In this document: piece by piece, positions 38,151 to 64,000 of the stretch
Position numbering within the stretch: position 1 is the first letter of the stretch
How the letters are laid out: each line of letters begins with the position of its first letter
DNA from: Sipunculus nudus
Taxonomy: Eukaryota; Annelida; Sipuncula; Golfingiida; Sipunculidae
DNA length: 64,000 nt
Direction: 5' to 3'
NCBI GenBank assembly: GCA_026874595.1
Contig: CM049318.1
Span: forward strand, 45,488,456 to 45,552,455
Program-made: the position numbers and the translations under genes
The notes under the pieces: model-generated
Databases searched by the model: none
Seen by the model: only the letters and a program-made list of their open reading frames with translations
What the model was told of the DNA's origin: nothing

Positions 38151-38199
38151 TACAAGCATGTATTAAAGGTGTGTGTCACAAGATTGTCATAAACATGGC

Positions 38200-41100
38200 A
38201 TAGACTTTCCCAAGCAAATTAACAAGCAAGTATAAAGGGTGTGTGTCACAAGACTGTCACTGTCACAAGATGGTCACAAACATGGCATAGACTTTCCCAA
38301 GCAAATTTACAAGCAAGTATAAAGGGTGTGTGTCACAAGATTTTCACTGTCACAAGATTGTCAAAAACATGGCATAGGCTTTCCCAAGCAAATTAACAAG
38401 CAAGTATAAAGGGTGTGTGTCATAAGATTGTCATTGTCACAAGATTGTCACAAAAATGGCATAGACTTTCCCAAGCAATTTTACAAGCAAGTGTTAAGGG
38501 TGTGTGTCACAAGATTGACACTGTCACAAGATTGTTTCAAACCTTGCACAGACTTTCCCAAGCAAATTTACAAGCAAATATAAATGGTGTGTGTCACAAG
38601 ATAGTCACTGTCACAAGATTGTCACAAACATGGCATAGACTTTCCCAAGCAATTTTACAAGCAAGTGTAAAGGGTGTGTGTCACAAGATTGTCATTGTCA
38701 CAGGATTGTCACAAACATGGCATAGACTTTCCCAAGCAAATTTACAAGCAAGTATAAAAGGTGTGTGTCACAAGATTGTCACTGTCACAAGATTGTCACA
38801 AACATGGAACTGACCGTCCCAAGCAGTTTTACAAGCTAGTGTAAAGGGTGTGTGTCACAAGATTGTCATTGTCACAGGATTGTCACAAACATGGCATAGA
38901 CTTTCCTAAGCAAATTTACGAGCAAGTATAAAAGGTGTGTGTCACAATATTGTCACTGTCACAAGATTGTCACAAGATTATCACAAACATGGAACTGACT
39001 GTCCCAAGCAAATTTATAAGCAAGCATAAAGGGTGTGTGTCACAAGATTGTCACTGTCACAAACATGTCGCAAACTTGGCAGAGACTTTCCCAAGCAAAT
39101 TTACAAGCAAATATAAAGATTGTGTGTCACAAGATTGTCACTGTCACAAGATTGTTTCAAACCTTGCACAGTCTTTCCCATGCAAATTTACAAGCAAATA
39201 TAAATGGTGTGTCACAAGATTGTCACTGTCACAAGATTGTCAGAAACATGGCATGGACTGTCCCAAGCAAATTTACAAGCAAGTATAAAGGGATTGTGTC
39301 ACAAGATTGTCACTGTCACAAGATTGTCACAAACATTGCACAGACTGTCCCAAGCAAATTTAGAAGCAAGCATAAAGGGTGTGTGTCACAAGATTGTCAC
39401 TGTCACAAACATGTCGCAAACATGGCACAGACTTTCCTAAGCAAATTAACAAGCAAGTATAAAGGTGTGTGTCATAAGATTGTCACTGTCACAAGATTGT
39501 CACAAACATGGCATAGACTTTCCCAAGCAAATTTACAAGCAATTATAAAGGGTGTGTGTCACAAGATGGTCACTGTCACAAGATTGTCACATACATGACA
39601 TAGACTTTCCCAAGCAAATTTACAAGCAATTATTAAAGGTATGTGTCACAAGATTGTCACAAACATGGCATAGACTTTCCGAAGCAAATTTACAAGCAAG
39701 TATAAAGGGTGTGTGTCACAAGATTGTCACTGTCACATGATTGTCACAAACATGGCATAGACTTTCCTAAGCAAATTGACAAGCAAGTATAAAAGGTGTG
39801 TGTCACAAGATTGTCCCTGTCACAAGATTGTCACAAACATGGAACTGACTGTCCAAAGCAAATTTACAAGCAAGTATAAAGGGTGTGTGTTACAAGATTG
39901 TCACTGTCACAAACATGTCGCAAACTTGGCAGAGACCTTCCCAAGCAAATTTACAAGCAAATATAAATGGTGTGTGTCACAAGATTGTCACTGTTACAAG
40001 ATTGTCACAAACATGGCATAGACTGTCCCAAGCAAATTTACAAGCAAGTATAAAAGGAGTGTGTCACAAGATTGTCACTGTCACAAGATTGTCAAAAACA
40101 TTGCACAGACTTTCCCAAGCAAATTTAGAAGCAAGCATAAAGGGTGTGTGTCACAAGATTGTCACTGTCACAAACATGTCGCAAACATGGCACAGACTTT
40201 CCCAAGCAAATTAACAAGCAAGTATAAAGGGTGTGTGTCACAAGATTGTCACTGTCACAAGATTGTCACAAACATGACATAGACTTTCCCAAGCAAATTT
40301 ACAAGCAAGTATAAAGGGTGTGTGTCACAAGATTGTCACTGTCACAAGATTGTCACAAACATGGCATAGACTGTCCCAAGCAAATTTACAAGCAAGTATA
40401 AAGGGATTGTGTCACAAGATTGTCACTGTCACAAGATTGTCACAAACATTGCACAGACTGTCCCAAGCAAATTTAGAAGCAAGCATAAAGGGTGTGTGTC
40501 ACAAGATTGTCACTGTCACAAACATGTCGCAAACATGACACAGACTTTCCTAAGCAAATTAACAAGCAAGTATAAAGGGTACGTGTCATAAGATTGTCAC
40601 TGTCACAAGATTGTCACAAACATGGCATAGACTTTCCCAAGCAAATTTACAAGCAAGTATAAAGGGTGTGTGTCACAAGATCGTCACTGTCACAAGATTG
40701 TCACATACATGGCATAGACTTTCCCAAGCAAATTTACAAGCAATTATTAAAGGTATGTGTCACAAGATTGTCACAAACATGGCATAGACTTTCCGAAGCA
40801 AATTTACAAGCAAGTATAAAGGGTGTGTGTTACAAGATTGTCACTGTCACATGATTGTCACAAACATGGCATAGAATTTCCTAAGCAAATTTACAAGCAA
40901 GTATAAAAGGTGTGTGTCACAAGATTGTCCCTGTCACAAGATTGTCACAAACATGGAACTGACTGTCCAAAGCAAATTTACAAGCAAGCATAAAGGGTGT
41001 GTGTTACAAGATTGTCACTGTCACAAACATGTCGCAAACTTGGCAGAGACCTTCCCAAGCAAATTTACAAGCAAATATAAATGGTGTGTGTCACAAGATT

Positions 41101-43713
41101 GTCACTGTCACAAGATTGTCATAAACATGGCATAAACTGTCCCAAGCAAATTTACAAGCAAGTATAAAGGGAGTGTGTCACAAGATTGTCACTGTCACAA
41201 GATTGTCACAAACATTGCACAGACTGTCCCAAGCAAATTTAGAAGAAAACATAAAGGGTGTGTGTCACAAGATTGTCACTGTCACAAACAGGTCGCAAAC
41301 ATGGCACAGACTTTCCCAAGCAAATTAACAAGCAAGTATAAAAGGTGTGTGTCACAAGATTGTCACTGTCACAAGATTGTCACAAACATGGCATAGACTT
41401 TCCCAAGCAAATGTACAAGCAAGTGTAAAGGGTGTGTGTCACAAGATTGTCACTGTCACAAGATTGTCACAAACATGGCATAGACTTTCCGAAGCAAATT
41501 TACAAGCAAGTATAAAGGGTGTGTGTCACAAGATAGTCACTGTCACAAGATTGTCACAAACATGGCATAGACTGTCCCAAGGAAATTTACAAGCAAGTAT
41601 AAAGGGAGTGTGTTACAAGATTGTCACTGTCACAAGATTGTCACAAACATTGCACAAACTGTCCCAAGCAAATTTACAAGCAAGCATAAAGGGTGTGTGT
41701 CACAAGATTGTCACTGTCACAAACATGTCGCAAACATGGCACAGACTTTCCCAAGCACATTAACAAGCAAGTATAAAGGGTGTGTGTCACAAGATTGTCA
41801 CTGTCACAAGATTGTCACAAACATGGCATAGACTTTCCCAAGCAAATTTACAAGCATGTATTAAAGGTGTGTGTCACAAGATTGTCATAAACATGGCATA
41901 GACTTTCCCAAGCAAATTAACAAGCAAGTATAAAGGGTGTGTGTCACAAGACTGTCACTGTCACAAGATTGTCACAAACATGGCATAGACTTTCCCAAGC
42001 AAATTTACAAGCAAGTATAAAGGGTGTGTGTCACAAGATTTTCACTGTCACAAGATTGTCAAAAACATGGCATAGGCTTTCCCAAGCAAATTAACAAGCA
42101 AGTATAAAGGGTGTGTGTCATAAGATTGTCACTGTCACAAGATTGTCACAAACATGGCATAGACTTTCCCAAGCAATTTTACAAGCAAGTGTTAAGGGTG
42201 TGTGTCACAAGATTGACACTGTCACAAGATTGTTTCAAACCTTGCACAGACTTTCCCAAGCAAATTTACAAGCAAATATAAATGGTGTGTGTCACAAGAT
42301 AGTCACTGTCACAAGATTGTCACAAACATGGCATAGACTTTCCCAAGCAATTTTACAAGCAAGTGTAAAGGGTGTGTGTCACAAGATTGTCATTGTCACA
42401 GGATTGTCACAAACATGGCATAGACTTTCCCAAGCAAATTTACAAGCAAGTATAAAAGGTGTGTGTCACAAGATTGTCACTGTCACAAGATTGTCACAAA
42501 CATGGAACTGACCGTCCCAAGCAGTTTTACAAGCTAGTGTAAAGGGTGTGTGTCACAAGATTGTCATTGTCACAGGATTGTCACAAACATGGCATAGACT
42601 TTCCTAAGCAAATTTACGAGCAAGTATAAAAGGTGTGTGTCACAATATTGTCACTGTCACAAGATTGTCACAAGATTATCACAAACATGGAACTGACTGT
42701 CCCAAGCAAATTTATAAGCAAGCATAAAGGGTGTGTGTCACAAGATTGTCACTGTCACAAACATGTCGCAAACTTGGCAGAGACTTTCCCAAGCAAATTT
42801 ATAAGCAAATATAAAGATTGTGTGTCACAAGATTGTCACTGTCAAAAGATTGTTTCAAACCTTGCACAGTCTTTCCCATGCAAATTTACAAGCAAATATA
42901 AATGATGTGTCACAAGATTGTCACTGTCACAAGATTGTCACAAACATGGCATAGACTGTCCCAAGCAAATTTACAAGCAAGTATAAAGGGATTGTGTCAC
43001 AAGATTGTCACTGTCACAAGATTGTCACAAACATTGCACAGACTGTCCCAAGCAAATTTAGAAGCAAGCATAAAGGGTGTGTGTCACAAGATTGTCACTG
43101 TCACAAACATGTCGCAAACATGGCACAGACTTTCCTAAGCAAATTAACAAGCAAGTATAAAGGGTGTGTGTCATAAGATTGTCACTGTCACAAGATTGTC
43201 ACAAACATGGCATAGACTTTCCCAAGCAAATTTACAAGCAATTATTAAAGGTATGTGTCACAAGATTGTCACAAACATGGCATAGACTTTCCCAAGCAAA
43301 TTTACAAGCAAGTATAAAGGGTGTGTGTTACAAGATTGTCACTGTCACAAACATGTCGCAAACTTGGCAGAGACCTTCCCAAGCAAATTTACAAGCAAAT
43401 ATAAATGGTGTGTGTCACAAGATTGTCACTGTTACAAGATTGTCACAAACATGGCATAGACTGTCCCAAGCAAATTTACAAGCAAGTATAAAAGGAGTGT
43501 GTCACAAGATTGTCACTGTCACAAGATTGTCACAAACATTGCACAGACTTTCCCAAGCAAATTTAGAAGCAAGCATAAAGGGTGTGTGTCACAAGATTGT
43601 CACTGTCACAAACATGTCGCAAACATGGCACAGACTTTCCCAAGCAAATTAACAAGCAAGTATAAAGGGTGTGTGTCACAAGATTGTCACTGTCACAAGA
43701 TTGTCACAAACAT
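38200..43713 (+). repeat. Alpha block, copy 1 of the ~20.1-kb-offset repeat
   Basis: Landmarks at 38,415, 38,935, 39,035, 39,552, 40,061, 41,347, 42,113, 42,994 and 43,164 each recur 20,113 bp downstream. The 98-bp monomers at 38,935 and 42,633 (spacing 3,698) recur at 59,048 and 62,746 (spacing 3,698). Shared rare changes include CAGAAACATGGCATGGAC near 39,242 and the AATTGACAAG variant near 39,776. Visible differences are few: GATCGTC at 40,680 versus GATGGTC at 60,793, and CCTAAGC versus CCTTAGC near 40,880/60,993. After about 43,315 the match continues at offset 20,287 because this copy lacks two monomers. Confidence 0.92.
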
Positions 43714-46700
43714 GGCATAGACTTTCCCAAGCAAATTTACAAGCAAGTATAAAGGGTGTGTGTCACAAGATTGTCACTGTCACAAGATTGTCACAAACAT
43801 GGCATAGACTTTCCCAAGCAAATTTACAAGCAAGTATAAAGGGTGTGTGTCACAAGATTGTCACTGTCACAAGATTGTCACAAACATGGCATAGACTTTC
43901 CCAAGCAATTTTACAAGCAAGTGTAAAGGGTGTGTGTCACAAGATTGTCATTGTCACAGGATTGTCAAAAACATGGCATAGACTTTCCTAAGCAAATTTA
44001 CAAGCAAGTATAAAAGGTGTGTGTCACAAGATTGCCACTGTCACAAGATTGTCACAAACATGGAACTGACTGTCCCAAGCAATTTTACAAGCAAGAGTAA
44101 AGGGTGTGTGTCACAAGATTGTCATTGTCACAGGATTGTCACAAACGTGGCATAGACTTTCCCAAGCAAATTTACAAGCAAGTATAAAAGGTGTGTGTCA
44201 CAAGATTGTCACTGTCACAAGATTGTCACAAACATGGAACTGACTGTCCCAAGCAAATTTATAAGCAAGCATAAAGGGTGTGTGTCACAAGATTGTCACT
44301 GTCACAAGATTGTCACAAACATGGCATAGACTTTCCCAAGCAAATTTACAAGCAAGAGTAAAGGGTGTGTGTCACAAGATTGTCACTGTCAAAAGATTGT
44401 CACAAACTTGGCATAGACTTTCCAAAGCAAATTTACGAGCAAGTATAAAAGGTGTGTGTCACAATATTGTCACTGTCACAAGATTGTCACAAACATGGAA
44501 CTGACTGTCCCAAGCAAATTTATAAGCAAGCATAAACGGTGTGTGTCACAAGATTGTCACTGTCACAAACATGTCGCAAACTTGGCAGAGACTTTCCCAA
44601 GCAAATTTACAAGCAAATATAAAGGTTGTGTGTCACAAGATTGTCACTGTCACAAGATTGTTTCAAACCTTGCACAGACTTTCCCATGCAAATTTACAAG
44701 CAAATATAAATGGTGTGTCACAAGATTGTCACTGTCACAAGATTGTCACAAACATGGCATAGACTGTCCCAAGCAAATTTACAAGCAAGTATAAAGGGAT
44801 TGTGTCACAAGATTGTCACTGTCACAAGATTGTCACAAACATTGCACAGACTGTCCCAAGCAAATTTAGAAGCAAGCATAAAGGGTGTGTGTCACAAGAT
44901 TGTCACTGTCACAAACATGTCGCAAACATGGCACAGACTTTCCTAAGCAAATTAACAAGCAAGTATAAAGGGTACGTGTCATAAGATTGTCACTGTCACA
45001 AGATTGTCACAAACATGGCAAAGACTTTCCCAAGCAAATTTACAAGCAAGTATAAAGGGTGTGTGTCACAAGATGGTCACTGTCACAAGATTGTCACATA
45101 CATGGCATAGACTTTCCCAAGCAAATTTACAAGCAATTATTAAAGGTATGTGTCACAAGATTGTCACAAACATGGTATAGACTTTCCGAAGCAAATTTAC
45201 AAGCAAGTATAAAGGGTGTGTGTCACAAGATTGTCACTGTCACATGATTGTCACAAACATGGCATAGACTTTCCTAAGCAAATTTACAAGCAAGTATAAA
45301 AGGTGTGTGTCACAAGATTATCTCTGTCACAAGATTGTCAGAAACATGGAACTGACTGTCCAAAGCAAATTTACAAGCAAGTATAAAGGGTGTGTGTTAC
45401 AAGATTGTCACTGTCACAAACATGTCGCAAACTTGGCAGAGACCTTCCCAAGCAAATTTACAAGCAAATATAAATGGTGTGTGTCACAAGATTGTCACTG
45501 TTACAAGATTGTCACAAACATGGCATAGACTGTCCCAAGCAAATTTACAAGCAAGTATAAAGGGAGTGTGTCACAAGATTGTCACTGTCACAAGATTGTC
45601 ACAAACATTGCCCAGACTTTCCCAAGCAAATTTAGAAGCAAGCATAAAGGGTGTGTGTCACAAGATTGTCACTGTCACAAACATGTCGCAAACATGGCAC
45701 AGACTTTCCCAAGCAAATTAACAAGCAAGTATAAAGGGTGTGTGTCACAAGATTGTCACTGTCACAAGATTGTCACAAACATGGCATAGACTTTCCCAAG
45801 CAAATTTACAAGCAAGTATAAAGGGTGTGTGTCACAAGATTGTCACTGTCACAAGATTGTCACAAACATGGCATAGACTTTCCCAAGCAATTTTACAAGC
45901 AAGTGTAAAGGGTGTGTGTCACAAGATTGTCATTGTCACAGGATTGTCAAAAACATGGCATAGACTTTCCTAAGCAAATTTACAAGCAAGTATAAAAGGT
46001 GTGTGTCACAAGATTGCCATTGTCACAAGATTGTCACAAACATGGAACTGACTGTCCCAAGCAATTTTACAAGCAAGTGTAAAGGGTGTGTGTCACAAGA
46101 TTGTCATTGTCACAGGATTGTCACAAACATGGCATAGACTTTCCCAAGCAAATTTACAAGCAAGTATAAAAGGTGTGTGTCACAAGATTGTCACTGTCAC
46201 AAGATTGTCACAAACATGGAACTGACTGTCCCAAGCAAATTTATAAGCAAGCATAAAGGGTGTGTGTCACAAGATTGTCACTGTCACAAGATTGTCACAA
46301 ACATGGCATAGACTTTCCCAAGCAAATTTACAAGCAAGAGTAAAGGGTGTGTGTCACAAGATTGTCACTGTCAAAAGATTGTCACAAACTTGGCATAGAC
46401 TTTCCAAAGCAAATTTACGAGCAAGTATAAAAGGTGTGTGTCACAATATTGTCACTGTCACAAGATTGTCACAAACATGGAACTGACTGTCCCAAGCAAA
46501 TTTATAAGCAAGCATAAACGGTGTGTGTCACAAGATTGTCACTGTCACAAACATGTCGCAAACTTGGCAGAGACTTTCCCAAGCAAATTTACAAGCAAAT
46601 ATAAAGGTTGTGTGTCACAAGATTGTCACTGTCACAAGATTGTTTCAAACCTTGCACAGACTTTCCCATGCAAATTTACAAGCAAATATAAATGGTGTGT

Positions 46701-47700
46701 CACAAGATTGTCACTGTCACAAGATTGTCACAAACATGGCATAGACTGTCCCAAGCAAATTTACAAGCAAGTATAAAGGGATTGTGTCACAAGATTGTCA
46801 CTGTCACAAGATTGTCACAAACATTGCACAGACTGTCCCAAGCAAATTTAGAAGCAAGCATAAAGGGTGTGTGTCACAAGATTGTCACTGTCACAAACAT
46901 GTCGCAAACATGGCACTGACTTTCCTAAGCAAATTAACAAGCAAGTATAAAGGGTACGTGTCATAAGATTGTCACTGTCACAAGATTGTCACAAACATGG
47001 CATAGACTTTCCCAAGCAAATTTACAAGCAAGTATAAAGGGTGTGTGTCACAAGATGGTCACTGTCACAAGATTGTCACATAAATGGCATAGACTTTCCC
47101 AAGCAAATTTACAAGCAATTATTAAAGGTATGTGTCACAAGATTGTCACAAACATGGCATAGACTTTCCGAAGCAAATTTACAAGCAAGTATAAAGGGTG
47201 TGTGTCATAAGATTGTCACTGTCACATGATTGTCACAAACATGGCATAGACTTTCCTAAGCAAATTTACAAGCAAGTATAAAAGGTGTGTGTCACAAGAT
47301 TGTCCCTGTCACAAACATGTCGCAAACTTGGCAGAGACCTTCCCAAGCAAATTTACAAGCAAATATAAATGGTGTGTGTCACAAGATTGTCACTGTCACA
47401 AGATTGTCATAAACATGGCATAAACTGTCCCAAGCAAATTTACAAGCAAGTATAAAGGGAGTGTGTCACAAGATTGTCACTGTCACAAGATTGTCACAAA
47501 CATGGCACAGACTGTCCCAAGCAAATTTAGAAGAAAACATAAAGGGTGTGTGTCACAAGATTGTCACTGTCACAAACATGTCGCAAACATGGCACAGACT
47601 TTCCCAAGCAAATTAACAAGCAAGTATAAAGGGTGTGTGTCACAAGATTGTCACTGTCACAAGATTGTCACAAACATGGCATAGACTTTCCGAAGCAAAT
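43713..47700 (+). repeat. Tandem 1,982-bp beta HORs (23 monomers)
   Basis: Landmarks at 43,758, 44,280, 44,456, 44,541, 44,802 and 45,059 recur at 45,740, 46,262, 46,438, 46,523, 46,784 and 47,041, all with offset 1,982. The length is 23 x 87 minus 19, the same 19-bp deficit as the 1,634 and 1,808-bp units. CATAAACGG follows the CACAATATTG monomer in both copies. Copies differ by isolated changes such as GCAAGAGTAAAG at about 44,093 versus GCAAGTGTAAAG at about 46,075. Confidence 0.88.
43756..43842 (+). repeat. Representative consensus 87-bp monomer
   Basis: This copy and its neighbours match the majority base at essentially all positions. Starting at the GT run, the order of parts is: (GT)4; a 17-bp unit TGTCACAAGATTGTCAC overlapping the end of the GT run; a second perfect copy of that unit; AAACATGGCATAGACTTTCC; then CAAGCAAATTTACAAGCAAG and TATAAAGG. 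The hexamer TGTCAC therefore occurs four times per monomer. The second half holds a shorter internal echo (CAAGCAAA / CAAGCAAG). The frame beginning at the first GTG is free of stops over all 29 codons; the other two plus-strand frames stop at TAG in GGCATAGAC and TAA in GTATAAAG. The monomer start chosen is arbitrary because the array is cyclic. Confidence 0.95.
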
Positions 47701-49370
47701 TTACAAGCAAGTATAAAGGGTGTGTGTCACAAAATTGTCACTGTCACAAGATTGTCACAAACATGGCATAGACTTTCCCAAGCAATTTTACAAGCAAGTG
47801 TAAAGGGTGTGTGTCACAAGATTGTCATTGTCACAGGATTGTCACAAACATGGCATAGACTTTCCTAAGCAAATTTACAAGCAAGTATAAAAGGTGTGTG
47901 TCACAAGAGTGTCACTGTCACAAGATTGTCACAAACATGGAACTGACTGTCCCAAGCAATTTTACAAGCAAGTGTAAAGGGTGTGTGTCACAAGATTGTC
48001 ACTGTCACAGGATTGTCACAAACATGGCATAGACTTTCCCAAGCAAATTTACAAGCAAGTATAAAAGGTGTGTGTCACAAGATTGTCACTGTCACAAGAT
48101 TGTCACAAACATGGAACTGACTGTCCCAAGCAAATTTAAAAGCAAGCATAAAGGGTGTGTGTCACAAGATTTTCACTGTCACAAGATTGTCACAAAGATG
48201 GCATAGACTTTCCCAAGCAAATTTACAAGCAAGAGTAAAGGGTGTGTGTCACAAGATTGTCACTGTCACAAGATTGTCACAAACATGGCATAGACTTTCC
48301 AAAGCAAATTTAAGAGCAAGTATAAAAGGTGTGTGTCACAATATTGTCACTGTCACAAGATTGTCACAAACATGGAACTGACTGTCCCAAGCAAATTTAT
48401 AAGCAAGCATAAAGGGTGTGTGTCACAAGATTGTCACTGTCACAAACATTTCGCAAACTTGGCAGAGACTTTCCCAAGCAAATTTACAAGCAAATATAAA
48501 GGTTGTGTGTCACAAGATTGTCACTGTCACAAGATTGTTTCAAACCTTGCACAGACTTTCCCATGCAAATTTACAAGCAAATATAAATGGTGTGTCACAA
48601 GATTGTCACTGTCACAAGATTGTCACTGTCACAAACATGTCGCAAATATGGCACAGACTTTCCCAAGCAAATTAACAAGCAAGTATAAAGGGTGTGTGTC
48701 ACAAGATTGTCACTGTCACAAGATTTTCACAAACATGGCATAGACTTTCCCAAGCAAATTTACAAGAAAGTATAAAGGGTGTGTGTACAAGATTGTCACT
48801 GTCACAAGATTGTCCCAAACATGGCATAGACTTTCCCAAGCAAATTTACAAGCAAGTATTAAAGGTGTGTTTCACAAGATTGTCACAAACATGGCATAGA
48901 CTTTCCCAAGCAAATTTATAAGCAAGTATGAAGGGTGTGTGTCACAAGATTGTCACTGTCGCAAGATTGTCACAAACACTGCACAGACTGTCCCAAGCAA
49001 ATTTAGAAGCAACCATAAAGGGTGTGTGTCACAAGATTGTCACTGTCACAAACATGTCGCAAACATTGCACAAACTGTCCCAAGCAAATTTAGAAGCAAG
49101 CATAAAGGGTGTGTGTCACAAGATTGTCACTGTCACAAACATGTCGCAAACATGGCACAGACTTTCCCAAGCAAATTAACAAGCAAGTATAAAGGGTGTG
49201 TGTCACAAGATTGTCACTGGCACAAGATTGTCACAAACATGGCATAGACTTTCCCAAGCAAATTTACAAGCAGGTATAAAGGGTGTGTGTCACAAGATTT
49301 TCACTGTCACAAGATTGTCAAAAACATGGCATAGGCTTTCCCAAGCAAATTTCAGGCAAGTATAAAGGGT
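46320..49370 (+). repeat. 8,374-bp-offset duplication, copy 1
   Basis: Landmarks at 46,438, 46,523, 47,463, 47,635, 48,157, 48,333, 48,694 and 48,928 recur 8,374 bp downstream, including a 1-bp-short GTGTGTACAAG monomer near 48,784 and the CATTTCGCAAAC change near 48,448. Between 47,041 and 47,229 the offset is 8,287, so one monomer is lost in the downstream copy and another in this copy. The loss in this copy is at the hybrid monomer 47,285-47,371, where TGTCCCTG is joined to TCACAAACATGTCGC. Confidence 0.87.
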
Positions 49371-50040: not shown

Positions 50041-53000
50041 CAAATTTATAAGCAAGCATAAACGGTGTGTGTCACAAGATTGTCACTGTCACAAACATGT
50101 CGCAAACTTGGCAGAGACTTTCCCAAGCAAATTTACAAGCAAATATAAAGGTTGTGTGTCACAAGATTGTCACGGTCACAAGATTGTTTCAAACCTTGCA
50201 CAGACTTTCCCATGCAAATTTACAAGCAAATATAAATGGTGTGTCACAAGATTGTCACTGTCACAAGATTGTCACAAACATGGCATAGACTGTCCCAAGC
50301 AAATTTACAAGCAAGTATAAAGGGATTGTGTCACAAGATTGTCACTGTCACAAGATTGTCACAAACATTGCACAGACTGTCCCAAGCAAATTTAGAAGCA
50401 AGCATAAAGGGTGTGTGTCACAAGATTGTCACTGTCACAAACATGTCGCAAACATGGCACAGACTTTCCTAAGCAAATTAACAAGCAAGTATAAAGGGTA
50501 CGTGTCATAAGATTGTCACTGTCACAAGATTGTCACAAACATGGCATAGACTTTCCCAAGCAAATTTACAAGCAAGTATAAAGGGTGTGTGTCACAAGAT
50601 GGTCACTGTCACAAGATTGTCACATACATGGCATAGACTTTCCCAAGCAAATTTACAAGCAATTATTAAAGGTATGTGTCACATGATTGTCACAAACATG
50701 GCATAGACTTTCCTAAGCAAATTTACAAGCAAGTATAAAAGGTGTGTGTCACAAGATTGTCCCTGTCACATGATTGTCACAAACATGGAACTGACTGTCC
50801 AAAGCAAATTTACAAGCAAGCATAAAGGGTGTGTGTTACAAGATTGTCACTGTCACAAACATGTCGCAAACTTGGCAGAGACCTTCCCAAGCAAATTTAC
50901 AAGCAAATATAAATGGTATGTGTCACAAGATTGTCACTGTCACAAGATTGTCATAAACATGGCATAAACTGTCCCAAGCAAATTTACAAGCAAGTATAAA
51001 GGGAGTGTGTCACAAGATTGTCACTGTCACAAGATTGTCACAAACATTGCACAGACTGTCCCAAGCAAATTTAGAAGAAAAAAATAAGGGTGTGTGTCAC
51101 AAGATTGTCACTGTCACAAACATGTCGCAAACATGGCACAGACTTTCCCAAGCAAATTAACAAGCAAGTATAAAGGGTGTGTGTCACAAGATTGTCACTG
51201 TCACAAGATTGTCACGAACATGGCATAGACTTTCCCAAGCAAATTTACAAGCAAGTTTAAAGGGTGTGTGTCACAAAATTGTCACTGTCACAAGATTGTC
51301 ACAAACATGGCATAGACTTTCCCAAGCAATTTTACAAGCAAGTGTAAAGGGTGTGTGTCACAAGATTGTCATTGTCACAGGATTGTCACAAATATGGCAT
51401 AGACTTTCCTAAGCAAATTTACAAGCAAGTATAAAAGGTGTGTGTCACAAGATTGTCACTGTCACAAGATTGTCACAAACATGGAACTGACTGTCCCAAG
51501 CAATTTTACAAGCAAGTGTAAAGGGTGTGTGTCACAAGATTGTCACTGTCACAGGATTGTCACAAACATGGCATAGACTTTCCCAAGCAAATTTACAAGC
51601 AAGTATAGAGGTGTGTGTCACAAGATTGTCACTGTCACAAGATTGTCACAAACATGGAACTGACTGTCCCAAGCAAATTTATAAGCAAGCATAAAGGGTG
51701 TGTGTCACAAGATTTTCACTGTCACAAGATTGTCACAAAGATGGCATAGACTTTCCCAAGCAAATTTACAAGCAAGAGTAAAGGGTGTGTGTCACAAGAT
51801 TGTCACTGTCACAAAATTGTCACAAACATGGCATAGACTTTCCAAAGCAAATTTACGAGCAAGTATAAATGGTGTGTGTCACAATATTGTCACTGTCACA
51901 AGATTGTCACAAACATGGAACTGACTGTCCCAAGCAAATTTATAAGCAAGCATAAAGGGTGTGTGTCACAAGATTGTCACTGTCACAAACATGTCGCAAA
52001 CTTGGCAGAGACTTTCCCAAGCAAATTTACAAGCAAATATAAAGGTTGTGTGTCACAAGATTGTCACTGTCACAAGATTGTTTCAAACCTTGCACAGACT
52101 TTCCCATGCAAATTTACAAGCAAATATAAATGGTGTGTCACAAGATTGTCACTATCACAAGATTGTCACTGTCACAAACATGTCGCAAACATGGCATAGA
52201 CTTTCCCAAGCAAATTAACAAGCAAGTATAAAGGGTGTGTGTCACAAGATTGTCACTGTCACAAGATTGTCACAAACATGGCATAGACTTTCCCAAGCAA
52301 ATTTACAAGAAAGTATAAAGGATGTGTGTCACAAGATTGTCACTGTCACAAGATTGTCCCAAACATGGCATAGACTTTCCCAAGCAAATTTACAAGCAAG
52401 TATTAAAGGTGTGTTTCACAAGATTGTCACAAACATGGCATAGACTTTCCCAAGCAAATTTATAAGCAAGTATGAAGGGTGTGTGTCACAAGATTGTCAC
52501 TGTCGCAAGATTGTCACAAACACTGCACAGACTGTCCCAAGCAAATTTAGAAGCAAGCATAAAGGGTGTGTGTCACAAGATTGTCACTGTCACAAACATG
52601 TCGCAAACATTGCACAAACTGTCCCAAGCAAATTTAGAAGCAAGCATAAAGGGTGTGTGTCACAAGATTGTCACTGTCACAAACATGTCGCAAACATGGC
52701 ACAGACTTTCCCAAGCAAATTAACAAGCAAGTATAAAGGGTGTGTGTCACAAGATTGTCACTGGCACAAGATTGTCACAAACATGGCATAGACTTTCCCA
52801 AGCAAATTTACAAGCAAGTATAAAGGGTGTGTGTCACAAGATTTTCACTGTCACAAGATTGTCAAAAACATGGCATAGGCTTTCCCAAGCAAATTTCAGG
52901 CAAGTGTAAAGGGTGTGTGTCACAAGATTGTCACTGTCACAAGATTATCACAAACATGGCATAGGCTTTCCAAAGCAAATTAACAAGCAAGTATTAAGGG

Positions 53001-54690
53001 TGTGTGTCATAAGATTGTCACTGTCACAAGATTGTCACAAACATGGCATAGACTTTCCCAAGCAATTTTACAAGCAAGTGTTAACGGTGTGTGTCACAAG
53101 ATTGACATTGTCACAAGATTGTTTCAAACCTTGCACAGACTTTCCCAAGCAAATTTACAAGCATATATAAATGGTGTGTGTCACAAGATAGTCACTGTCA
53201 CAAGATTGTCACAAACATGGCATTGACTTTCCCAAGCAATTTTACAAGCAAGTGTAAAGGGTGTGTGTCACAAGATTGTCATTGTCACAGGATTGTCACA
53301 AACATGGCATAGACTTTCCTAAGCAAATTTACAAGCAAGTATAAAAGGTGTGTGTCACAAGATTGTCACTGTCACAAGATTGTCACAAACATGGAACTGA
53401 CTGTCCCAAGCAATTTTACAAGCAAGTGTAAAGGGTGTGTGTCACAAGATTGTCACTGTCACAGGATTGTCACAAACATGGCATAGACTTTCCCAAGCAA
53501 ATTTACAAGCAAGTATAGAGGTGTGTGTCACAAGATTGTCACTGTCACAAGATTGTCACAAACATGGAACTGACTGTCCCAAGCAAATTTATAAGCAAGC
53601 ATAAAGGGTGTGTGTCACAAGATTTTCACTGTCACGAGATTGTCACAAAGATGGCATAGACTTTCCCAAGCAAATTTACAAGCAAGAGTAAAGGGTGTGT
53701 GTCACAAGATTGTCACTGTCACAAAATTGTCACAAACATGGCATGGACTTTCCAAAGCAAATTTACGAGCAAGTATAAATGGTGTGTGTCACAATATTGT
53801 CACTGTCACAAGATTGTCACAAACATGGAACTGACTGTCCCAAGCAAATTTATAAGCAAGCATAAAGGGTGTGTGTCACAAGATTGTCACTGTCACAAGA
53901 TTGTCACAAACATGGCATAGACTTTCCCAAGCAAATTTACAAGAAAGTATAAAGGATGTGTGTCACAAGATTGTCACTGTCACAAGATTGTCCCAAACAT
54001 GGCATAGACTTTCCCAAGCAAATTTACAAGCAAGTATTAAAGGTGTGTTTCACAAGATTGTCACAAACATGGCATAGACTTTCCCAAGCAAATTTATAAG
54101 CAAGTATGAAGGGTGTGTGTCACAAGATTGTCACTGTCGCAAGTTTGTCACAAACACTGCACAGACTGTCCCAAGCAAATTTAGAAGCAAGCATAAAGGG
54201 TGTGTGTCACAAGATTGTCACTGTCACAAACATGTCGCAAACATTGCACAAACTGTCCCAAGCAAATTTAGAAGCAAGCATAAAGGGTGTGTGTCACAAG
54301 ATTGTCACTGTCACAAACATGTCGCAAACATGGCACAGACTTTCCCAAGCAAATTAACAAGCAAGTATAAAGGGTGTGTGTCACAAGATTGTCACTGGCA
54401 CAAGATTGTCACAAACATGGCATAGACTTTCCCAAGCAAATTTACAAGCAAGTATAAAGGGTGTGTGTCACAAGATTTTCACTGTCACAAGATTGTCAAA
54501 AACATGGCATAGGCTTTCCCAAGCAAATTTCAGGCAAGTGTAAAGGGTGTGTGTCACAAGATTGTCACTGTCACAAGATTGTCACAAACATGGAACTGAC
54601 TGTCCCAAGCAAATTTAAAAGCAAGCATAAAGGGTGTGTGTCACAAGATTTTCACTGTCACAAGATTGTCACAAAGATGGCATAGACTTT
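50040..54690 (+). repeat. Beta HOR remainder with nested partial duplications
   Basis: About 51,880-52,910 repeats 48,336-49,360 (offset 3,543, becoming 3,544 after the 1-bp-short monomer near 48,786). About 53,300-53,835 repeats the stretch near 51,390-51,925 at offset 1,910; from 53,871 the offset is 1,634 relative to 52,237. The 276-bp change equals 104 + 87 + 85 bp, the three monomers that are missing in the later copy around 53,850. Other private changes are GTATAGAGG near 51,604 and 53,514 and GAAAAAAATAAGG near 51,080. Confidence 0.8.
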
Positions 54691-57600
54691 CCCAAGCAAA
54701 TTTACAAGCAAGAGTAAAGGGTGTGTGTCACAAGATTGTCACTGTCAAAAGATTGTCACAAACTTGGCATAGACTTTCCAAAGCAAATTTACGAGCAAGT
54801 ATAAAAGGTGTGTGTCACAATATTGTCACTGTCACAAGATTGTCACAAACATGGAACTGACTGTCCCAAGCAAATTTATAAGCAAGCATAAACGGTGTGT
54901 GTCACAAGATTGTCACTGTCACAAACATGTCGCAAACTTGGCAGAGACTTTCCCAAGCAAATTTACAAGCAAATATAAAGGTTGTGTGTCACAAGATTGT
55001 CACTGTCACAAGATTGTTTCAAACCTTGCACAGACTTTCCCATGCAAATTTACAAGCAAATATAAATGGTGTGTCACAAGATTGTCACTGTCACAAGATT
55101 GTCACAAACATGGCATAGACTGTCCCAAGCAAATTTACAAGCAAGTATAAAGGGATTGTGTCACAAGATTGTCACTGTCACAAGATTGTCACAAACATTG
55201 CACAGACTGTCCCAAGCAAATTAACAAGCAAGTATAAAGGGTACGTGTCATAAGATTGTCACTGTCACAAGATTGTCACAAACATGGCATAGACTTTCCC
55301 AAGCAAATTTACAAGCAAGTATAAAGGGTGTGTGTCACAAGATGGTCACTGTCACAAGATTGTCACATAAATGGCATAGACTTTCCCAAGCAAATTTACA
55401 AGCAATTATTAAAGGTATGTGTCACAAGATTGTCACAAACATGGCATAGACTTTCCGAAGCAAATTTACAAGCAAGTATAAAGGGTGTGTGTCATAAGAT
55501 TGTCACTGTCACATGATTGTCACAAACATGGCATAGACTTTCCTAAGCAAATTTACAAGCAAGTATAAAAGGTGTGTGTCACAAGATTGTCCCTGTCACA
55601 AGATTGTCACAAACATGGAACTGACTGTCCAAAGCAAATTTACAAGCAAGCATAAAGGGTGTGTGTTACAAGATTGTCACTGTCACAAACATGTCGCAAA
55701 CTTGGCAGAGACCTTCCCAAGCAAATTTACAAGCAAATATAAATGGTGTGTGTCACAAGATTGTCACTGTCACAAGATTGTCATAAACATGGCATAAACT
55801 GTCCCAAGCAAATTTACAAGCAAGTATAAAGGGAGTGTGTCACAAGATTGTCACTGTCACAAGATTGTCACAAACATGGCACAGACTGTCCCAAGCAAAT
55901 TTAGAAGAAAACATAAAGGGTGTGTGTCACAAGATTGTCACTGTCACAAACATGTCGCAAACATGGCACAGACTTTCCCAAGCAAATTAACAAGCAAGTA
56001 TAAAGGGTGTGTGTCACAAGATTGTCACTGTCACAAGATTGTCACAAACATGGCATAGACTTTCCGAAGCAAATTTACAAGCAAGTATGAAGGGTGTGTG
56101 TCACAAAATTGTCACTGTCACAAGATTGTCACAAACATGGCATAGACTTTCCCAAGCAATTTTACAAGCAAGTGTAAAGGGTGTGTGTCACAAGATTGTC
56201 ATTGTCACAGGATTGTCACAAACATGGCATAGACTTTCCTAAGCAAATTTACAAGCAAGTATAAAAGGTGTGTGTCACAAGATTGTCACTGTCACAAGAT
56301 TGTCACAAACATGGAACTGACTGTCCCAAGCAATTTTACAAGCAAGTGTAAAGGGTGTGTGTCACAAGATTGTCACTGTCACAGGATTGTCACAAACATG
56401 GCATAGACTTTCCCAAGCAAATTTACAAGCAAGTATAAAAGGTGTGTGTCACAAGATTGTCACTGTCACAAGATTGTCACAAACATGGAACTGACTGTCC
56501 CAAGCAAATTTAAAAGCAAGCATAAAGGGTGTGTGTCACAAGATTTTCACTGTCACAAGATTGTCACAAAGATGGCATAGACTTTCCCAAGCAAATTTAC
56601 AAGCAAGAGTAAAGGGTGTGTGTCACAAGATTGTCACTGTCACAAGATTGTCACAAACATGGCATAGACTTTCCAAAGCAAATTTAAGAGCAAGTATAAA
56701 AGGTGTGTGTCACAATATTGTCACTGTCACAAGATTGTCACAAACATGGAACTGACTGTCCCAAGCAAATTTATAAGCAAGCATAAAGGGTGTGTGTCAC
56801 AAGATTGTCACTGTCACAAACATTTCGCAAACTTGGCAGAGACTTTCCCAAGCAAATTTACAAGCAAATATAAAGGTTGTGTGTCACAAGATTGTCACTG
56901 TCACAAGATTGTTTCAAACCTTGCACAGACTTTCCCATGCAAATTTACAAGCAAATATAAATGGTGTGTCACAAGATTGTCACTGTCACAAGATTGTCAC
57001 TGTCACAAACATGTCGCAAATATGGCACAGACTTTCCCAAGCAAATTAACAAGCAAGTATAAAGGGTGTGTGTCACAAGATTGTCACTGTCACAAGATTG
57101 TCACAAACATGGCATAGACTTTCCCAAGCAAATTTACAAGAAAGTATAAAGGGTGTGTGTACAAGATTGTCACTGTCACAAGATTGTCCCAAACATGGCA
57201 TAGACTTTCCCAAGCAAATTTACAAGCAAGTATTAAAGGTGTGTTTCACAAGATTGTCACAAACATGGCATAGACTTTCCCAAGCAAATTTATAAGCAAG
57301 TATGAAGGGTGTGTGTCACAAGATTGTCACTGTCGCAAGATTGTCACAAACACTGCACAGACTGTCCCAAGCAAATTTAGAAGCAAGCATAAAGGGTGTG
57401 TGTCACAAGATTGTCACTGTCACAAACATGTCGCAAACATTGCACAAACTGTCCCAAGCAAATTTAGAAGCAAGCATAAAGGGTGTGTGTCACAAGATTG
57501 TCACTGTCACAAACATGTCGCAAACATGGCACAGACTTTCCCAAGCAAATTAACAAGCAAGTATAAAGGGTGTGTGTCACAAGATTGTCACTGGCACAAG

Positions 57601-57740
57601 ATTGTCACAAACATGGCATAGACTTTCCCAAGCAAATTTACAAGCAGGTATAAAGGGTGTGTGTCACAAGATTTTCACTGTCACAAGATTGTCAAAAACA
57701 TGGCATAGGCTTTCCCAAGCAAATTTCAGGCAAGTGTAAA
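54690..57740 (+). repeat. 8,374-bp-offset duplication, copy 2
   Basis: Second copy of the 3-kb beta segment. It retains the ordinary TTGTCCCTGTCACAAGATTG monomer (near 55,580) that copy 1 has lost. It has its own one-monomer loss at 55,154-55,240, where an ATTGCACAGACTG left half is fused to an AAATTAACAAG right half. The TCACAATATT landmarks at 54,815 and 56,710 keep the same 1,895-bp spacing as 46,441 and 48,336 because the two losses cancel. Confidence 0.87.
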
Positions 57741-58399
57741 GGGTGTGTGTCACAAGATTGTCACTGTCACAAGATTGTCACAAACATGGCATAGGCTTTC
57801 CCAAGCAAATTAACAAGCAAGTATTAAGGGTGTGTGTCATAAGATTGTCACTGTCACAAGATTGTCACAAACATGGCATAGACCTTCCCAAGCAATTTTA
57901 CAAGCAAGTGTTAAGGGTGTGTGTCACAAGATTGACACTGTCACAAGATTGTTTCAAACCTTGCACAGACTTTCCCAAGCAAATTTACAAGCATATATAA
58001 ATGGTGTGTGTCACAAGATAGTCACTGTCACAAGATTGTCACAAACATGGCATAGACTGTCCCAAGCAAATTTACAAGCAAGTATAAAGGGAGTGTGTCA
58101 CAAGATTGTCACTGTCACAAGATTGTCACAAACATTGCACAAACTGTCCCAAGCAAATTTAGAAGCAAGCATAAAGGGTGTGTGTCACAAGATTGTCACT
58201 GTCACAAGATTGTCATAAACATGGCATAGACTTTCCCAAGCAATTTTACGAGCAAGTGTAAAGGGTGTGTGTCATAAGATTGTCACTGTCACAAGATTGT
58301 CACAAACATGGCATAGACTTTCCCAAGCAAATTTACAAGCAAGTATAAAGGGTGTGTGTCACAAGACTGTCACTGTCACAAGATTGTCACAAACATGGC

Positions 58400-61300
58400 A
58401 TAGACTTTCCCAAGCAAATTTACAAGCAAGTATAAAGGGTGTGTGTCACAAGATTTTCACTGTCACAAGATTGTCAAAAACATGGCATAGGCTTTCCCAA
58501 GCAAATTAACAAGCAAGTATAAAGGGTGTGTGTCATAAGATTGTCATTGTCACAAGATTGTCACAAAAATGGCATAGACTTTCCCAAGCAATTTTACAAG
58601 CAAGTGTTAAGGGTGTGTGTCACAAGATTGACACTGTCACAAGATTGTTTCAAACCTTGCACAGACTTTCCCAAGCAAATTTACAAGCAAATATAAATGG
58701 TGTGTGTCACAAGATAGTCACTGTCACAAGATTGTCACAAACATGGCATAGACTTTCCCAAGCAATTTTACAAGCAAGTGTAAAGGGTGTGTGTCACAAG
58801 ATTGTCATTGTCACAGGATTGTCACAAACATGGCATAGACTTTCCCAAGCAAATTTACAAGCAAGTATAAAAGGTGTGTGTCACAAGATTGTCACTGTCA
58901 CAAGATTGTCACAAACATGGAACTGACCGTCCCAAGCAGTTTTACAAGCTAGTGTAAAGGGTGTGTGTCACAAGATTGTCATTGTCACAGGATTGTCACA
59001 AACATGGCATAGACTTTCCTAAGCAAATTTACGAGCAAGTATAAAAGGTGTGTGTCACAATATTGTCACTGTCACAAGATTGTCACAAGATTATCACAAA
59101 CATGGAACTGACTGTCCCAAGCAAATTTATAAGCAAGCATAAAGGGTGTGTGTCACAAGATTGTCACTGTCACAAACATGTCGCAAACTTGGCAGAGACT
59201 TTCCCAAGCAAATTTACAAGCAAATATAAAGATTGTGTGTCACAAGATTGTCACTGTCACAAGATTGTTTCAAACCTTGCACAGTCTTTCCCATGCAAAT
59301 TTACAAGCAAATATAAATGGTGTGTCACAAGATTGTCACTGTCACAAGATTGTCAGAAACATGGCATGGACTGTCCCAAGCAAATTTACAAGCAAGTATA
59401 AAGGGATTGTGTCACAAGATTGTCACTGTCACAAGATTGTCACAAACATTGCACAGACTGTCCCAAGCAAATTTAGAAGCAAGCATAAAGGGTGTGTGTC
59501 ACAAGATTGTCACTGTCACAAACATGTCGCAAACATGGCACAGACTTTCCTAAGCAAATTAACAAGCAAGTATAAAGGTGTGTGTCATAAGATTGTCACT
59601 GTCACAAGATTGTCACAAACATGGCATAGACTTTCCCAAGCAAATTTACAAGCAATTATAAAGGGTGTGTGTCACAAGATGGTCACTGTCACAAGATTGT
59701 CACATACATGACATAGACTTTCCCAAGCAAATTTACAAGCAATTATTAAAGGTATGTGTCACAAGATTGTCACAAACATGGCATAGACTTTCCGAAGCAA
59801 ATTTACAAGCAAGTATAAAGGGTGTGTGTCACAAGATTGTCACTGTCACATGATTGTCACAAACATGGCATAGACTTTCCTAAGCAAATTGACAAGCAAG
59901 TATAAAAGGTGTGTGTCACAAGATTGTCCCTGTCACAAGATTGTCACAAACATGGAACTGACTGTCCAAAGCAAATTTACAAGCAAGTATAAAGGGTGTG
60001 TGTTACAAGATTGTCACTGTCACAAACATGTCGCAAACTTGGCAGAGACCTTCCCAAGCAAATTTACAAGCAAATATAAATGGTGTGTGTCACAAGATTG
60101 TCACTGTTACAAGATTGTCACAAACATGGCATAGACTGTCCCAAGCAAATTTACAAGCAAGTATAAAAGGAGTGTGTCACAAGATTGTCACTGTCACAAG
60201 ATTGTCAAAAACATTGCACAGACTTTCCCAAGCAAATTTAGAAGCAAGCATAAAGGGTGTGTGTCACAAGATTGTCACTGTCACAAACATGTCGCAAACA
60301 TGGCACAGACTTTCCCAAGCAAATTAACAAGCAAGTATAAAGGGTGTGTGTCACAAGATTGTCACTGTCACAAGATTGTCACAAACATGACATAGACTTT
60401 CCCAAGCAAATTTACAAGCAAGTATAAAGGGTGTGTGTCACAAGATTGTCACTGTCACAAGATTGTCACAAACATGGCATAGACTGTCCCAAGCAAATTT
60501 ACAAGCAAGTATAAAGGGATTGTGTCACAAGATTGTCACTGTCACAAGATTGTCACAAACATTGCACAGACTGTCCCAAGCAAATTTAGAAGCAAGCATA
60601 AAGGGTGTGTGTCACAAGATTGTCACTGTCACAAACATGTCGCAAACATGACACAGACTTTCCTAAGCAAATTAACAAGCAAGTATAAAGGGTACGTGTC
60701 ATAAGATTGTCACTGTCACAAGATTGTCACAAACATGGCATAGACTTTCCCAAGCAAATTTACAAGCAAGTATAAAGGGTGTGTGTCACAAGATGGTCAC
60801 TGTCACAAGATTGTCACATACATGGCATAGACTTTCCCAAGCAAATTTACAAGCAATTATTAAAGGTATGTGTCACAAGATTGTCACAAACATGGCATAG
60901 ACTTTCCGAAGCAAATTTACAAGCAAGTATAAAGGGTGTGTGTTACAAGATTGTCACTGTCACATGATTGTCACAAACATGGCATAGAATTTCCTTAGCA
61001 AATTTACAAGCAAGTATAAAAGGTGTGTGTCACAAGATTGTCCCTGTCACAAGATTGTCACAAACATGGAACTGACTGTCCAAAGCAAATTTACAAGCAA
61101 GCATAAAGGGTGTGTGTTACAAGATTGTCACTGTCACAAACATGTCGCAAACTTGGCAGAGACCTTCCCAAGCAAATTTACAAGCAAATATAAATGGTGT
61201 GTGTCACAAGATTGTCACTGTCACAAGATTGTCATAAACATGGCATAAACTGTCCCAAGCAAATTTACAAGCAAGTATAAAGGGAGTGTGTCACAAGATT

Positions 61301-64000
61301 GTCACTGTCACAAGATTGTCACAAACATTGCACAGACTGTCCCAAGCAAATTTAGAAGAAAACATAAAGGGTGTGTGTCACAAGATTGTCACTGTCACAA
61401 ACAGGTCGCAAACATGGCACAGACTTTCCCAAGCAAATTAACAAGCAAGTATAAAAGGTGTGTGTCACAAGATTGTCACTGTCACAAGATTGTCACAAAC
61501 ATGGCATAGACTTTCCCAAGCAAATGTACAAGCAAGTGTAAAGGGTGTGTGTCACAAGATTGTCACTGTCACAAGATTGTCACAAACATGGCATAGACTT
61601 TCCGAAGCAAATTTACAAGCAAGTATAAAGGGTGTGTGTCACAAGATAGTCACTGTCACAAGATTGTCACAAACATGGCATAGACTGTCCCAAGGAAATT
61701 TACAAGCAAGTATAAAGGGAGTGTGTTACAAGATTGTCACTGTCACAAGATTGTCACAAACATTGCACAAACTGTCCCAAGCAAATTTACAAGCAAGCAT
61801 AAAGGGTGTGTGTCACAAGATTGTCACTGTCACAAACATGTCGCAAACATGGCACAGACTTTCCCAAGCACATTAACAAGCAAGTATAAAGGGTGTGTGT
61901 CACAAGATTGTCACTGTCACAAGATTGTCACAAACATGGCATAGACTTTCCCAAGCAAATTTACAAGCATGTATTAAAGGTGTGTGTCACAAGATTGTCA
62001 TAAACATGGCATAGACTTTCCCAAGCAAATTAACAAGCAAGTATAAAGGGTGTGTGTCACAAGACTGTCACTGTCACAAGATTGTCACAAACATGGCATA
62101 GACTTTCCCAAGCAAATTTACAAGCAAGTATAAAGGGTGTGTGTCACAAGATTTTCACTGTCACAAGATTGTCAAAAACATGGCATAGGCTTTCCCAAGC
62201 AAATTAACAAGCAAGTATAAAGGGTGTGTGTCATAAGATTGTCACTGTCACAAGATTGTCACAAACATGGCATAGACTTTCCCAAGCAATTTTACAAGCA
62301 AGTGTTAAGGGTGTGTGTCACAAGATTGACACTGTCACAAGATTGTTTCAAACCTTGCACAGACTTTCCCAAGCAAATTTACAAGCAAATATAAATGGTG
62401 TGTGTCACAAGATAGTCACTGTCACAAGATTGTCACAAACATGGCATAGACTTTCCCAAGCAATTTTACAAGCAAGTGTAAAGGGTGTGTGTCACAAGAT
62501 TGTCATTGTCACAGGATTGTCACAAACATGGCATAGACTTTCCCAAGCAAATTTACAAGCAAGTATAAAAGGTGTGTGTCACAAGATTGTCACTGTCACA
62601 AGATTGTCACAAACATGGAACTGACCGTCCCAAGCAGTTTTACAAGCTAGTGTAAAGGGTGTGTGTCACAAGATTGTCATTGTCACAGGATTGTCACAAA
62701 CATGGCATAGACTTTCCTAAGCAAATTTACGAGCAAGTATAAAAGGTGTGTGTCACAATATTGTCACTGTCACAAGATTGTCACAAGATTATCACAAACA
62801 TGGAACTGACTGTCCCAAGCAAATTTATAAGCAAGCATAAAGGGTGTGTGTCACAAGATTGTCACTGTCACAAACATGTCGCAAACTTGGCAGAGACTTT
62901 CCCAAGCAAATTTATAAGCAAATATAAAGATTGTGTGTCACAAGATTGTCACTGTCAAAAGATTGTTTCAAACCTTGCACAGTCTTTCCCATGCAAATTT
63001 ACAAGCAAATATAAATGATGTGTCACAAGATTGTCACTGTCACAAGATTGTCACAAACATGGCATAGACTGTCCCAAGCAAATTTACAAGCAAGTATAAA
63101 GGGATTGTGTCACAAGATTGTCACTGTCACAAGATTGTCACAAACATTGCACAGACTGTCCCAAGCAAATTTAGAAGCAAGCATAAAGGGTGTGTGTCAC
63201 AAGATTGTCACTGTCACAAACATGTCGCAAACATGGCACAGACTTTCCTAAGCAAATTAACAAGCAAGTATAAAGGGTGTGTGTCATAAGATTGTCACTG
63301 TCACAAGATTGTCACAAACATGGCATAGACTTTCCCAAGCAAATTTACAAGCAATTATTAAAGGTATGTGTCACAAGATTGTCACAAACATGGCATAGAC
63401 TTTCCCAAGCAAATTTACAAGCAAGTATAAAGGGTGTGTGTCACAAGATTGTCACTGTCACATGATTGTCACAAACATGGCATAGACTTTCCTAAGCAAA
63501 TTTACAAGCAAGTATAAAAGGTGTGTGTCACAAGATTGTCCCTGTCACAAGATTGTCACAAACATGGAACTGACTGTCCAAAGCAAATTTACAAGCAAGT
63601 ATAAAGGGTGTGTGTTACAAGATTGTCACTGTCACAAACATGTCGCAAACCTGGCAGAGACCTTCCCAAGCAAATTTACAAGCAAATATAAATGGTGTGT
63701 GTCACAAGATTGTCACTGTTACAAGATTGTCACAAACATGGCATAGACTGTCCCAAGCAAATTTACAAGCAAGTATAAAAGGAGTGTGTCACAAGATTGT
63801 CACTGTCACAAGATTGTCACAAACATTGCACAGACTTTCCCAAGCAAATTTAGAAGCAAGCATAAAGGGTGTGTGTCACAAGATTGTCACTGTCACAAAC
63901 ATGTCGCAAACATGGCACAGACTTTCCCAAGCAAATTAACAAGCAAGTATAAAGGGTGTGTGTCACAAGATTGTCACTGTCACAAGATTGTCACAAACAT
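58400..64000 (+). repeat. Alpha block, copy 2 of the ~20.1-kb-offset repeat (cut by window end)
   Basis: Near-identical to 38.2-43.7 kb. It has two extra monomers at about 63,434-63,607 (the ATGATTG and TTGTCCCTG variants), after which the sequence again follows 43,323-43,713 to the last base of the window, with only an AACCTGGC/AACTTGGC-type difference seen near 63,651. The left boundary is near 58,330-58,400, where an alpha-like series replaces the preceding beta order. The right boundary lies outside the window. Confidence 0.92.

What the first reader, a model, noticed from the sequence alone, without database searches (positions are those of the whole stretch)
38200..64000. Third-tier repeat with a period of about 20.1-20.3 kb
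About 5.5 kb at 38.2-43.7 kb recurs at 58.4-64.0 kb with only a handful of base differences and one two-monomer indel (offset 20,113, then 20,287). The match runs to the last base of the window, so it is not a bounded insert. The simplest reading is a tandem super-unit of about 20 kb built of many HORs, above the 87-bp and 1.5-5.5-kb tiers. A concrete prediction is that the 14 kb after this window should resemble 43.7-58.3 kb.
Basis: partly seen in the sequence, partly recalled or inferred. Interest (0 to 1): 0.72.

Follow-up and report, generated by a model that had tools for sequence, protein, structure and literature searches.

The report
Recent large duplication inside satellite DNA
A stretch of about 5 kb or more of this repetitive satellite DNA occurs twice, 20 kb apart and almost identical, most likely because part of the array was copied once by an ordinary misaligned DNA exchange rather than because it has a regular 20-kb repeat layer.

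Summary
The window is one 87-bp satellite (742 monomers) in short higher-order repeats (HORs) that open with a 70-bp monomer. The reported pair is real: 38,273-43,328 recurs at 58,386-63,441 with 2 substitutions in 5,056 bp. The inferences drawn from it are weaker. (1) The last 420 bp, after the 'two-monomer indel', match two other places equally well; the last pair-specific site is at 43,204, so continuation to the window end is not shown. (2) Left of 38.2 kb there is no sign of a 20-kb period: the 233-monomer offset ranks 597th of 641. (3) A clean two-copy tandem duplication of 5,520 bp, of similar youth, lies directly to the left; other young pairs have offsets of 1.6, 1.8, 7.2 and 8.4 kb. 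Best reading: one recent two-copy duplication of about 20.1 kb by unequal exchange in monomer register, in an array that changes by duplications of many sizes. A bounded 5.1-kb copy, an assembly duplicate and a true third tier remain possible. The DNA to the right would decide; none is held. Interest is low to moderate.

The parts
38273..43328 (+). Copy A, the near-identical core of the pair
   Evidence: 2 substitutions in 5,056 bp against 58,386-63,441
58386..63441 (+). Copy B of the core
   Evidence: offset 20,113
38222..38434 (+). Interval that holds the left breakpoint, in copy A
   Evidence: last monomer-type difference at 38,221; first pair-private site at 38,434
58335..58547 (+). The same interval in copy B, inside a 29-monomer hybrid HOR (57,175-59,687)
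43294..43713 (+). Stretch of A after the 174-bp gap; not diagnostic for the pair
   Evidence: 0 mismatches to 29,685-30,104 and 35,205-35,624, 1 to 63,581-64,000
63407..63580 (+). 174 bp (two monomers' worth, types E and B) present in B and absent in A: an indel, or the place where the copy ends; its placement can slide by up to 35 bp
63581..64000 (+). Window tail; equally near three places
   Evidence: 1 mismatch each to 29,685, 35,205 and 43,294
27112..32589 (+). First copy of the neighbouring 5,520-bp tandem duplication
   Evidence: 5 substitutions in 5,478 bp
32632..38109 (+). Second copy of the 5,520-bp duplication
   Evidence: offset 5,520
4836..8184 (+). Older relative of the start of the A/B block, 33.3 kb to the left of A
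   Evidence: 99.22% to 38,105-41,454; from 4,906 on 99.21% to 58,288-61,567

Best explanation
The window is an 87-bp satellite array that changes by repeated duplications of very different sizes. The A/B pair is the left part of one recent two-copy tandem duplication of about 20.1 kb (233 monomers). It was made by exchange between misaligned sister chromatids or homologues, paired in the 87-bp monomer register but out of HOR phase, at monomers now at 38.2-38.4 and 58.3-58.5 kb. The second copy would then run to about 78.4 kb, and the 174-bp difference would be a later loss of two monomers in copy A. Shown: the near-identity, the left junction, the absence of the period on the left. Inferred: that copy B continues past the window, and the exchange mechanism.
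For: Near-identity. The left end is sharp: B's junction lies in a hybrid HOR of 29 monomers, while A keeps the order H-K that is also seen at 2,758, 4,836 and 8,359. The neighbouring duplication of similar age (5 of 5,478 against 2 of 5,056 substitutions; binomial p 0.46) has a match about as long as its period (5,478 of 5,520), as a simple tandem duplication should. The pair at offset 1,634 is exact over 1,659 bp. Monomer indels are common: 0.07-0.17 per substitution in the five classes from 0.1 to 2.5% divergence; HOR 15,603 lacks the same E-B monomers that its neighbour 13,621 has, at 0.27% divergence. [quoted passage not shown]
Against: Nothing after 43,328 / 63,441 is specific to the pair, so the copy may stop there. 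Other young pairs are shorter than their offset (7,233: 3,094 bp; 8,374: 2,056 bp), so not every copy here is a clean tandem duplication. In the youngest class of HOR pairs (under 0.1%, 5 pairs, all from the two duplications discussed) the one indel counted is the extra monomer at the 5,520-bp joint, so no later monomer loss is seen inside either pair of complete HORs. In one human pedigree study the de novo changes in alpha-satellite HOR arrays were integer HORs of 680 to 12,228 bp (PMC12240836, passages); here the junction is out of HOR phase.
Confidence: 0.55

Rival explanations
1. A bounded copy of about 5.1 kb (four HORs, 59-60 monomers) that ends at 43.2-43.3 / 63.3-63.4 kb, made by long-tract gene conversion, break-induced replication with template switching, or reinsertion of a circle. 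The 'indel' is then its right-hand breakpoint.
For: Last pair-private site at 43,204 and none afterwards. With the E-B monomers included, B's tail 63,300-64,000 aligns without gaps to 29,404-30,104 and 34,924-35,624, 5 mismatches of 701 each. Other young pairs shorter than their offset exist.
Against: A's tail is among the three nearest to B's tail (1 mismatch of 420), though such closeness is not rare: 18 of 120 pairs among 16 like stretches, which were picked as near matches. A lost monomer pair in A explains the gap with one common kind of event.
Confidence: 0.25
2. A false duplication in the assembly: two haplotypes or two read groups of the same place laid one after the other.
For: Divergence below 0.1% is what two alleles might show; near-identical tracts in a satellite are hard to assemble (established knowledge, not tested here).
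Against: No Ns in the window. Both copies carry private changes (40,682 in A; 60,996 and 63,651 in B) and the left junction is a hybrid HOR in monomer register. None of this excludes an artefact.
Confidence: 0.12
3. A true third tier: an array of several 20-kb super-units that starts at about 38.2 kb.
For: One step is present and copy B is not shown to end.
Against: No trace of the period left of 38.2 kb. Relatives of the block lie 33.3 kb and 20.1 kb apart, not evenly. Only two copies seen. In a toy model without any super-unit, such a pair appeared in 15, 28 and 30 of 60 simulated windows when duplications reached 300 monomers, 4, 4 and 5 of 60 at 150, and 0 of 60 three times at 64 (parameters arbitrary).
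Confidence: 0.08

Closest known systems
Germline gains in human alpha-satellite HOR arrays (PMC12746033 and PMC12240836; passages seen)
   Same: Kilobase to tens-of-kilobase gains of satellite units; germline insertions of about 1.2-7.5 kb and one of 56 kb are reported
   Different: Another satellite (87-bp against about 171-bp monomers); in PMC12240836 the changes in HOR arrays were integer HORs, here the junction is in monomer register but out of HOR phase
Cascading 58mer alpha-satellite superHOR of the orangutan Y (PMC12428378; abstract and introduction read)
   Same: Long unit of many monomers with monomer types repeated inside it; low divergence between copies
   Different: That array has 67 copies of about 10 kb (58 x 171 bp, my arithmetic); here there are two copies, the second only partly seen
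EulaSat5, an 87-bp larch satellite with signs of HORs (PMC8312256; passages seen)
   Same: Monomer length 87 bp; strong hexamer and heptamer bands
   Different: Stated G+C 50% against 39% here; its sequence was not compared

Membership tests
Satellite array with higher-order repeats | Head-to-tail monomers of one length on one strand | tested here: met
   639 of 742 anchor spacings are 87 bp and 41 are 70 bp; no 14-mer shared with the reverse strand
Satellite array with higher-order repeats | Multi-monomer units more alike than the monomers within them | tested here: met
   mean monomer distance 11.1 edits against 0.1-3.2 per monomer in the 60 listed collinear pairs; 41 units start with the 70-bp monomer
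Super-HOR / third-tier array | The same large unit repeated collinearly several times | tested here: not met
   one pair only; 233-monomer offset 597th of 641 left of 38.17 kb. Met or not to the right of the window could not be tested
Two-copy tandem duplication | Length of the match equals the period | tested here: inconclusive
   about met for the 5,520-bp neighbour (5,478 bp); for the 20,113-bp pair the window ends after 5.7 kb of copy B and the last 420 bp are not diagnostic
Unequal homologous exchange | Junction in monomer register between similar monomers | tested here: met
   left junction in monomers 38,175 (type K) and 58,288 (type A), which differ at 38,190 and 38,221; 5,520-bp joint within one 87-bp monomer. 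Gene conversion would look the same at one end
Centromeric satellite | Carries the centromeric histone | not testable with these tools
   species unknown; no exact CENP-B box by a recalled motif, which proves nothing

The most novel reading that the evidence does not exclude
A 233-monomer (20.1-kb) super-HOR array begins at 38.2 kb and continues rightwards: a third level of organisation seeded by one out-of-phase exchange and caught close to its birth, with copies under 0.1% apart.
Probability: 0.08. Interest if true: 0.55.

Novelty: new member of a known kind. Interest (0 to 1): 0.22.

Why it matters
Two very young duplications, of 5.5 and probably about 20 kb, lie side by side with readable joints in a satellite array, where such events are usually blurred. 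Both joints suggest exchange in monomer register rather than in HOR phase. The case also shows how a single large duplication can look like a new level of repeat order in a short window.

Tried and rejected
A duplicate that arose side by side as about 5 kb and was later pushed 20 kb apart: rejected as the main reading, because the DNA between the copies holds repeats more diverged than the copies themselves (47,306-49,361 against 55,680-57,735, 0.195%) and so seems mostly older. In the toy model, duplications of at most 64 monomers never gave such a distant pair (0 of 60 in each of three settings).

A genome, plasmid, phage or RNA-family source: no whole genome is held for the window. One 41-base and one 46-base exact pattern found nothing in prokaryote contigs, the first also nothing in viral contigs. 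A 1,301-base piece (38,273-39,573) found nothing in plasmids or phages at E 1e-5. The window has no Rfam match at gathering scores. The species stays unknown; I infer a eukaryote from the kind of repeat.

Papers: searches for pieces of the monomer sequence and for an 87-bp satellite showed no paper with this satellite. One search listed one paper on human chromosome 8 (listing only); led to larch EulaSat5, whose stated G+C does not fit. The library lacks most subscription journals, so this does not show that the satellite is unpublished.

The end of the 5.5-kb duplication (38,151-38,158, if it is a simple two-copy event) lies 64-284 bp from the start of the 20.1-kb one (38,222-38,434). That could mean a shared break site, but by my rough reckoning (no call) such nearness would arise by chance in about 5% of cases, so I claim nothing.

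Full report
WHAT THE WINDOW IS. All 64,000 bases are one satellite on one strand: 39% G+C, no Ns, no 14-mer shared with the reverse strand. Anchoring on a conserved stretch gives 742 spacings, of which 639 are 87 bp and 41 are 70 bp. Average-linkage clustering at 5 edits gives 33 monomer types. The 41 monomers of the 70-bp type (H) each open a HOR; the 40 units complete between two H monomers have 5 to 29 monomers. No relative was found in the collections searched and no genome is held, so the species is unknown; a eukaryote is inferred from the kind of repeat.

THE PAIR IS REAL. The core of 5,056 bp has 2 substitutions. By score it is second of 110 monomer diagonals, behind the 5,520-bp pair, and first of 26 base-level tracts, narrowly ahead of it.

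ITS LEFT END. Left of 38,175 the two copies fall out of step, because A has a 70-bp monomer where B has an 87-bp one. In the next monomer A is type K, identical to K at 4,906, 8,429 and others, while B is type A. The first site private to the pair is at 38,434 (all five k-mer sizes agree). The exchange point therefore lies at 38,222-38,434 in A and 58,335-58,547 in B. The A-G difference at 38,272 is private to A and counts as a later change. A's order, H then K, is also found at 2,758, 4,836 and 8,359, whereas B sits in a hybrid HOR of 29 monomers. B's left edge is thus the new joint.

ITS RIGHT END IS UNKNOWN. The last site private to the pair is at 43,204, and only in contexts of 61 bp or more; with 25- and 40-mers the last lies near 42,928-42,944. 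After the 174-bp gap, B's tail of 420 bp has one mismatch to A, but also one to 29,685-30,104 and one to 35,205-35,624. Of 120 pairs among 16 such stretches, picked as near matches and including copies made by the duplications, 18 differ by at most one base. With the two extra monomers kept, B's last 701 bp align without gaps to 29,404 and 34,924, 5 mismatches each. So the window does not show that the match continues, and the indel may be a breakpoint. On the other side, monomer indels are common here. Of the 286 HOR pairs that aligned over at least 70% of the longer unit (units under 11 monomers and the cut last unit dropped), the 160 under 2.5% divergence show 0.07 to 0.17 indels per substitution in five classes and 0.25 in the youngest. 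That last figure rests on one indel in 5 pairs, and it is the extra monomer at the 5,520-bp joint. With about four substitutions since the copying, one later indel is unremarkable but not demanded. I leave this open and lean to continuation.

NO 20-KB PERIOD TO THE LEFT. With copy A restricted to monomers left of 38.17 kb, the share of monomer pairs within 2 edits was ranked over offsets of 1 to 641 monomers. The 233-monomer offset came 597th of 641 with 1.1%; 231 monomers, the best of 231-235, came 108th with 5.6%; the top was 620 monomers with 29.5%. That test allows no indels, so gapped monomer alignments were also made: 18.0-38.1 kb against the stretch 20,113 bp further on matched best at an offset of about 26 kb (18,003-22,746 with 44,040-48,870; 45 edits in 54 monomers), and 0.1-18.0 kb at about 22.5-23.1 kb with 187 edits in 100 monomers and 29 gaps; only 38.1-43.7 kb matched at 20.1 kb (7 edits in 63 monomers). 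Relatives of the A/B block lie at 4.8, 38.1 and 58.3 kb, 33.3 and 20.1 kb apart.

A SPECTRUM OF DUPLICATIONS. Near-identical pairs occur at offsets of 5,520 (5,478 bp, 5 substitutions), 7,233 (3,094 bp, 5), 1,634 (1,659 bp, 0), 8,374 (2,056 bp, 4) and 1,808 (1,823 bp, 3) as well as 20,113. The 5,520-bp pair looks like a clean tandem duplication: match length and period nearly agree, both ends lie in the window, and its HORs of 26 and 18 monomers occur just twice. Its age cannot be told from that of the 20.1-kb pair (p 0.46 for 5 of 5,478 against 2 of 5,056; p 0.75 for 6 of 5,520 against 4 of 5,441, the latter counting 38,272 and the tail). The pairs at 7,233 and 8,374 are shorter than their offsets and do not fit a simple tandem copy.

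HOW IT MOST LIKELY WORKS. Misaligned pairing of sister chromatids or homologues in the 87-bp register, followed by exchange, duplicates the DNA between the two points. The joints at 32.6 and 58.3 kb fit this, since both lie within monomers in register. Published pedigrees show this class of event in human satellite arrays: germline insertions of about 1.2-7.5 kb and one of 56 kb (PMC12746033, passages), and integer-HOR changes of 680 to 12,228 bp (PMC12240836, passages). [quoted passage not shown] A toy model without any super-unit, asking for a pair of at least 58 monomers (6 misfits allowed) at 150 monomers or more, gave such pairs in 15-30 of 60 windows when duplications up to 300 monomers were allowed, in 4-5 of 60 at 150 and in none at 64 (an earlier run at 300 gave 27 of 60). 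Its parameters are arbitrary; it shows only that one pair does not need a third tier, and that in such a model it does need large events.

VERDICT. A real, very young, large duplication in a mosaic satellite array; ordinary in kind, with unusually readable joints. The third-tier reading is not supported by the window but could be settled by the next 20-40 kb.

Noticed in passing
27112-38158: A clean-looking 5,520-bp (64-monomer) two-copy tandem duplication, 5 substitutions in 5,478 bp, whose end lies 64-284 bp from the start of the 20.1-kb one; possibly a shared break site.
   Followed up: partly
22677-27151: An island of more diverged, irregular HORs with several monomer types seen once in the window and one anchor spacing of 43 bp near 26,205; probably an older layer.
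   Followed up: no
47064-58026: Two kinds of HOR, one ending in types QFA and one starting HACSFTU, follow each other three times at steps of about 3.5 and 4.7 kb, with one extra HACSFTU unit at 53,979.
   Followed up: no
1-64000: Many 87-bp monomers carry a 17-bp direct repeat (TRF lists it again and again); the 70-bp monomer that opens each HOR looks like a monomer that lost one copy of it.
   Followed up: partly
15603-15759 and 43187-43343: The same two monomers (E, B) are missing from two HORs whose following 420 bp differ by 10 mismatches, so the loss may have recurred, although both share a T at the joint.
   Followed up: partly
1-64000: Strong strand bias of A over T (22,925 against 16,075).
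   Followed up: no
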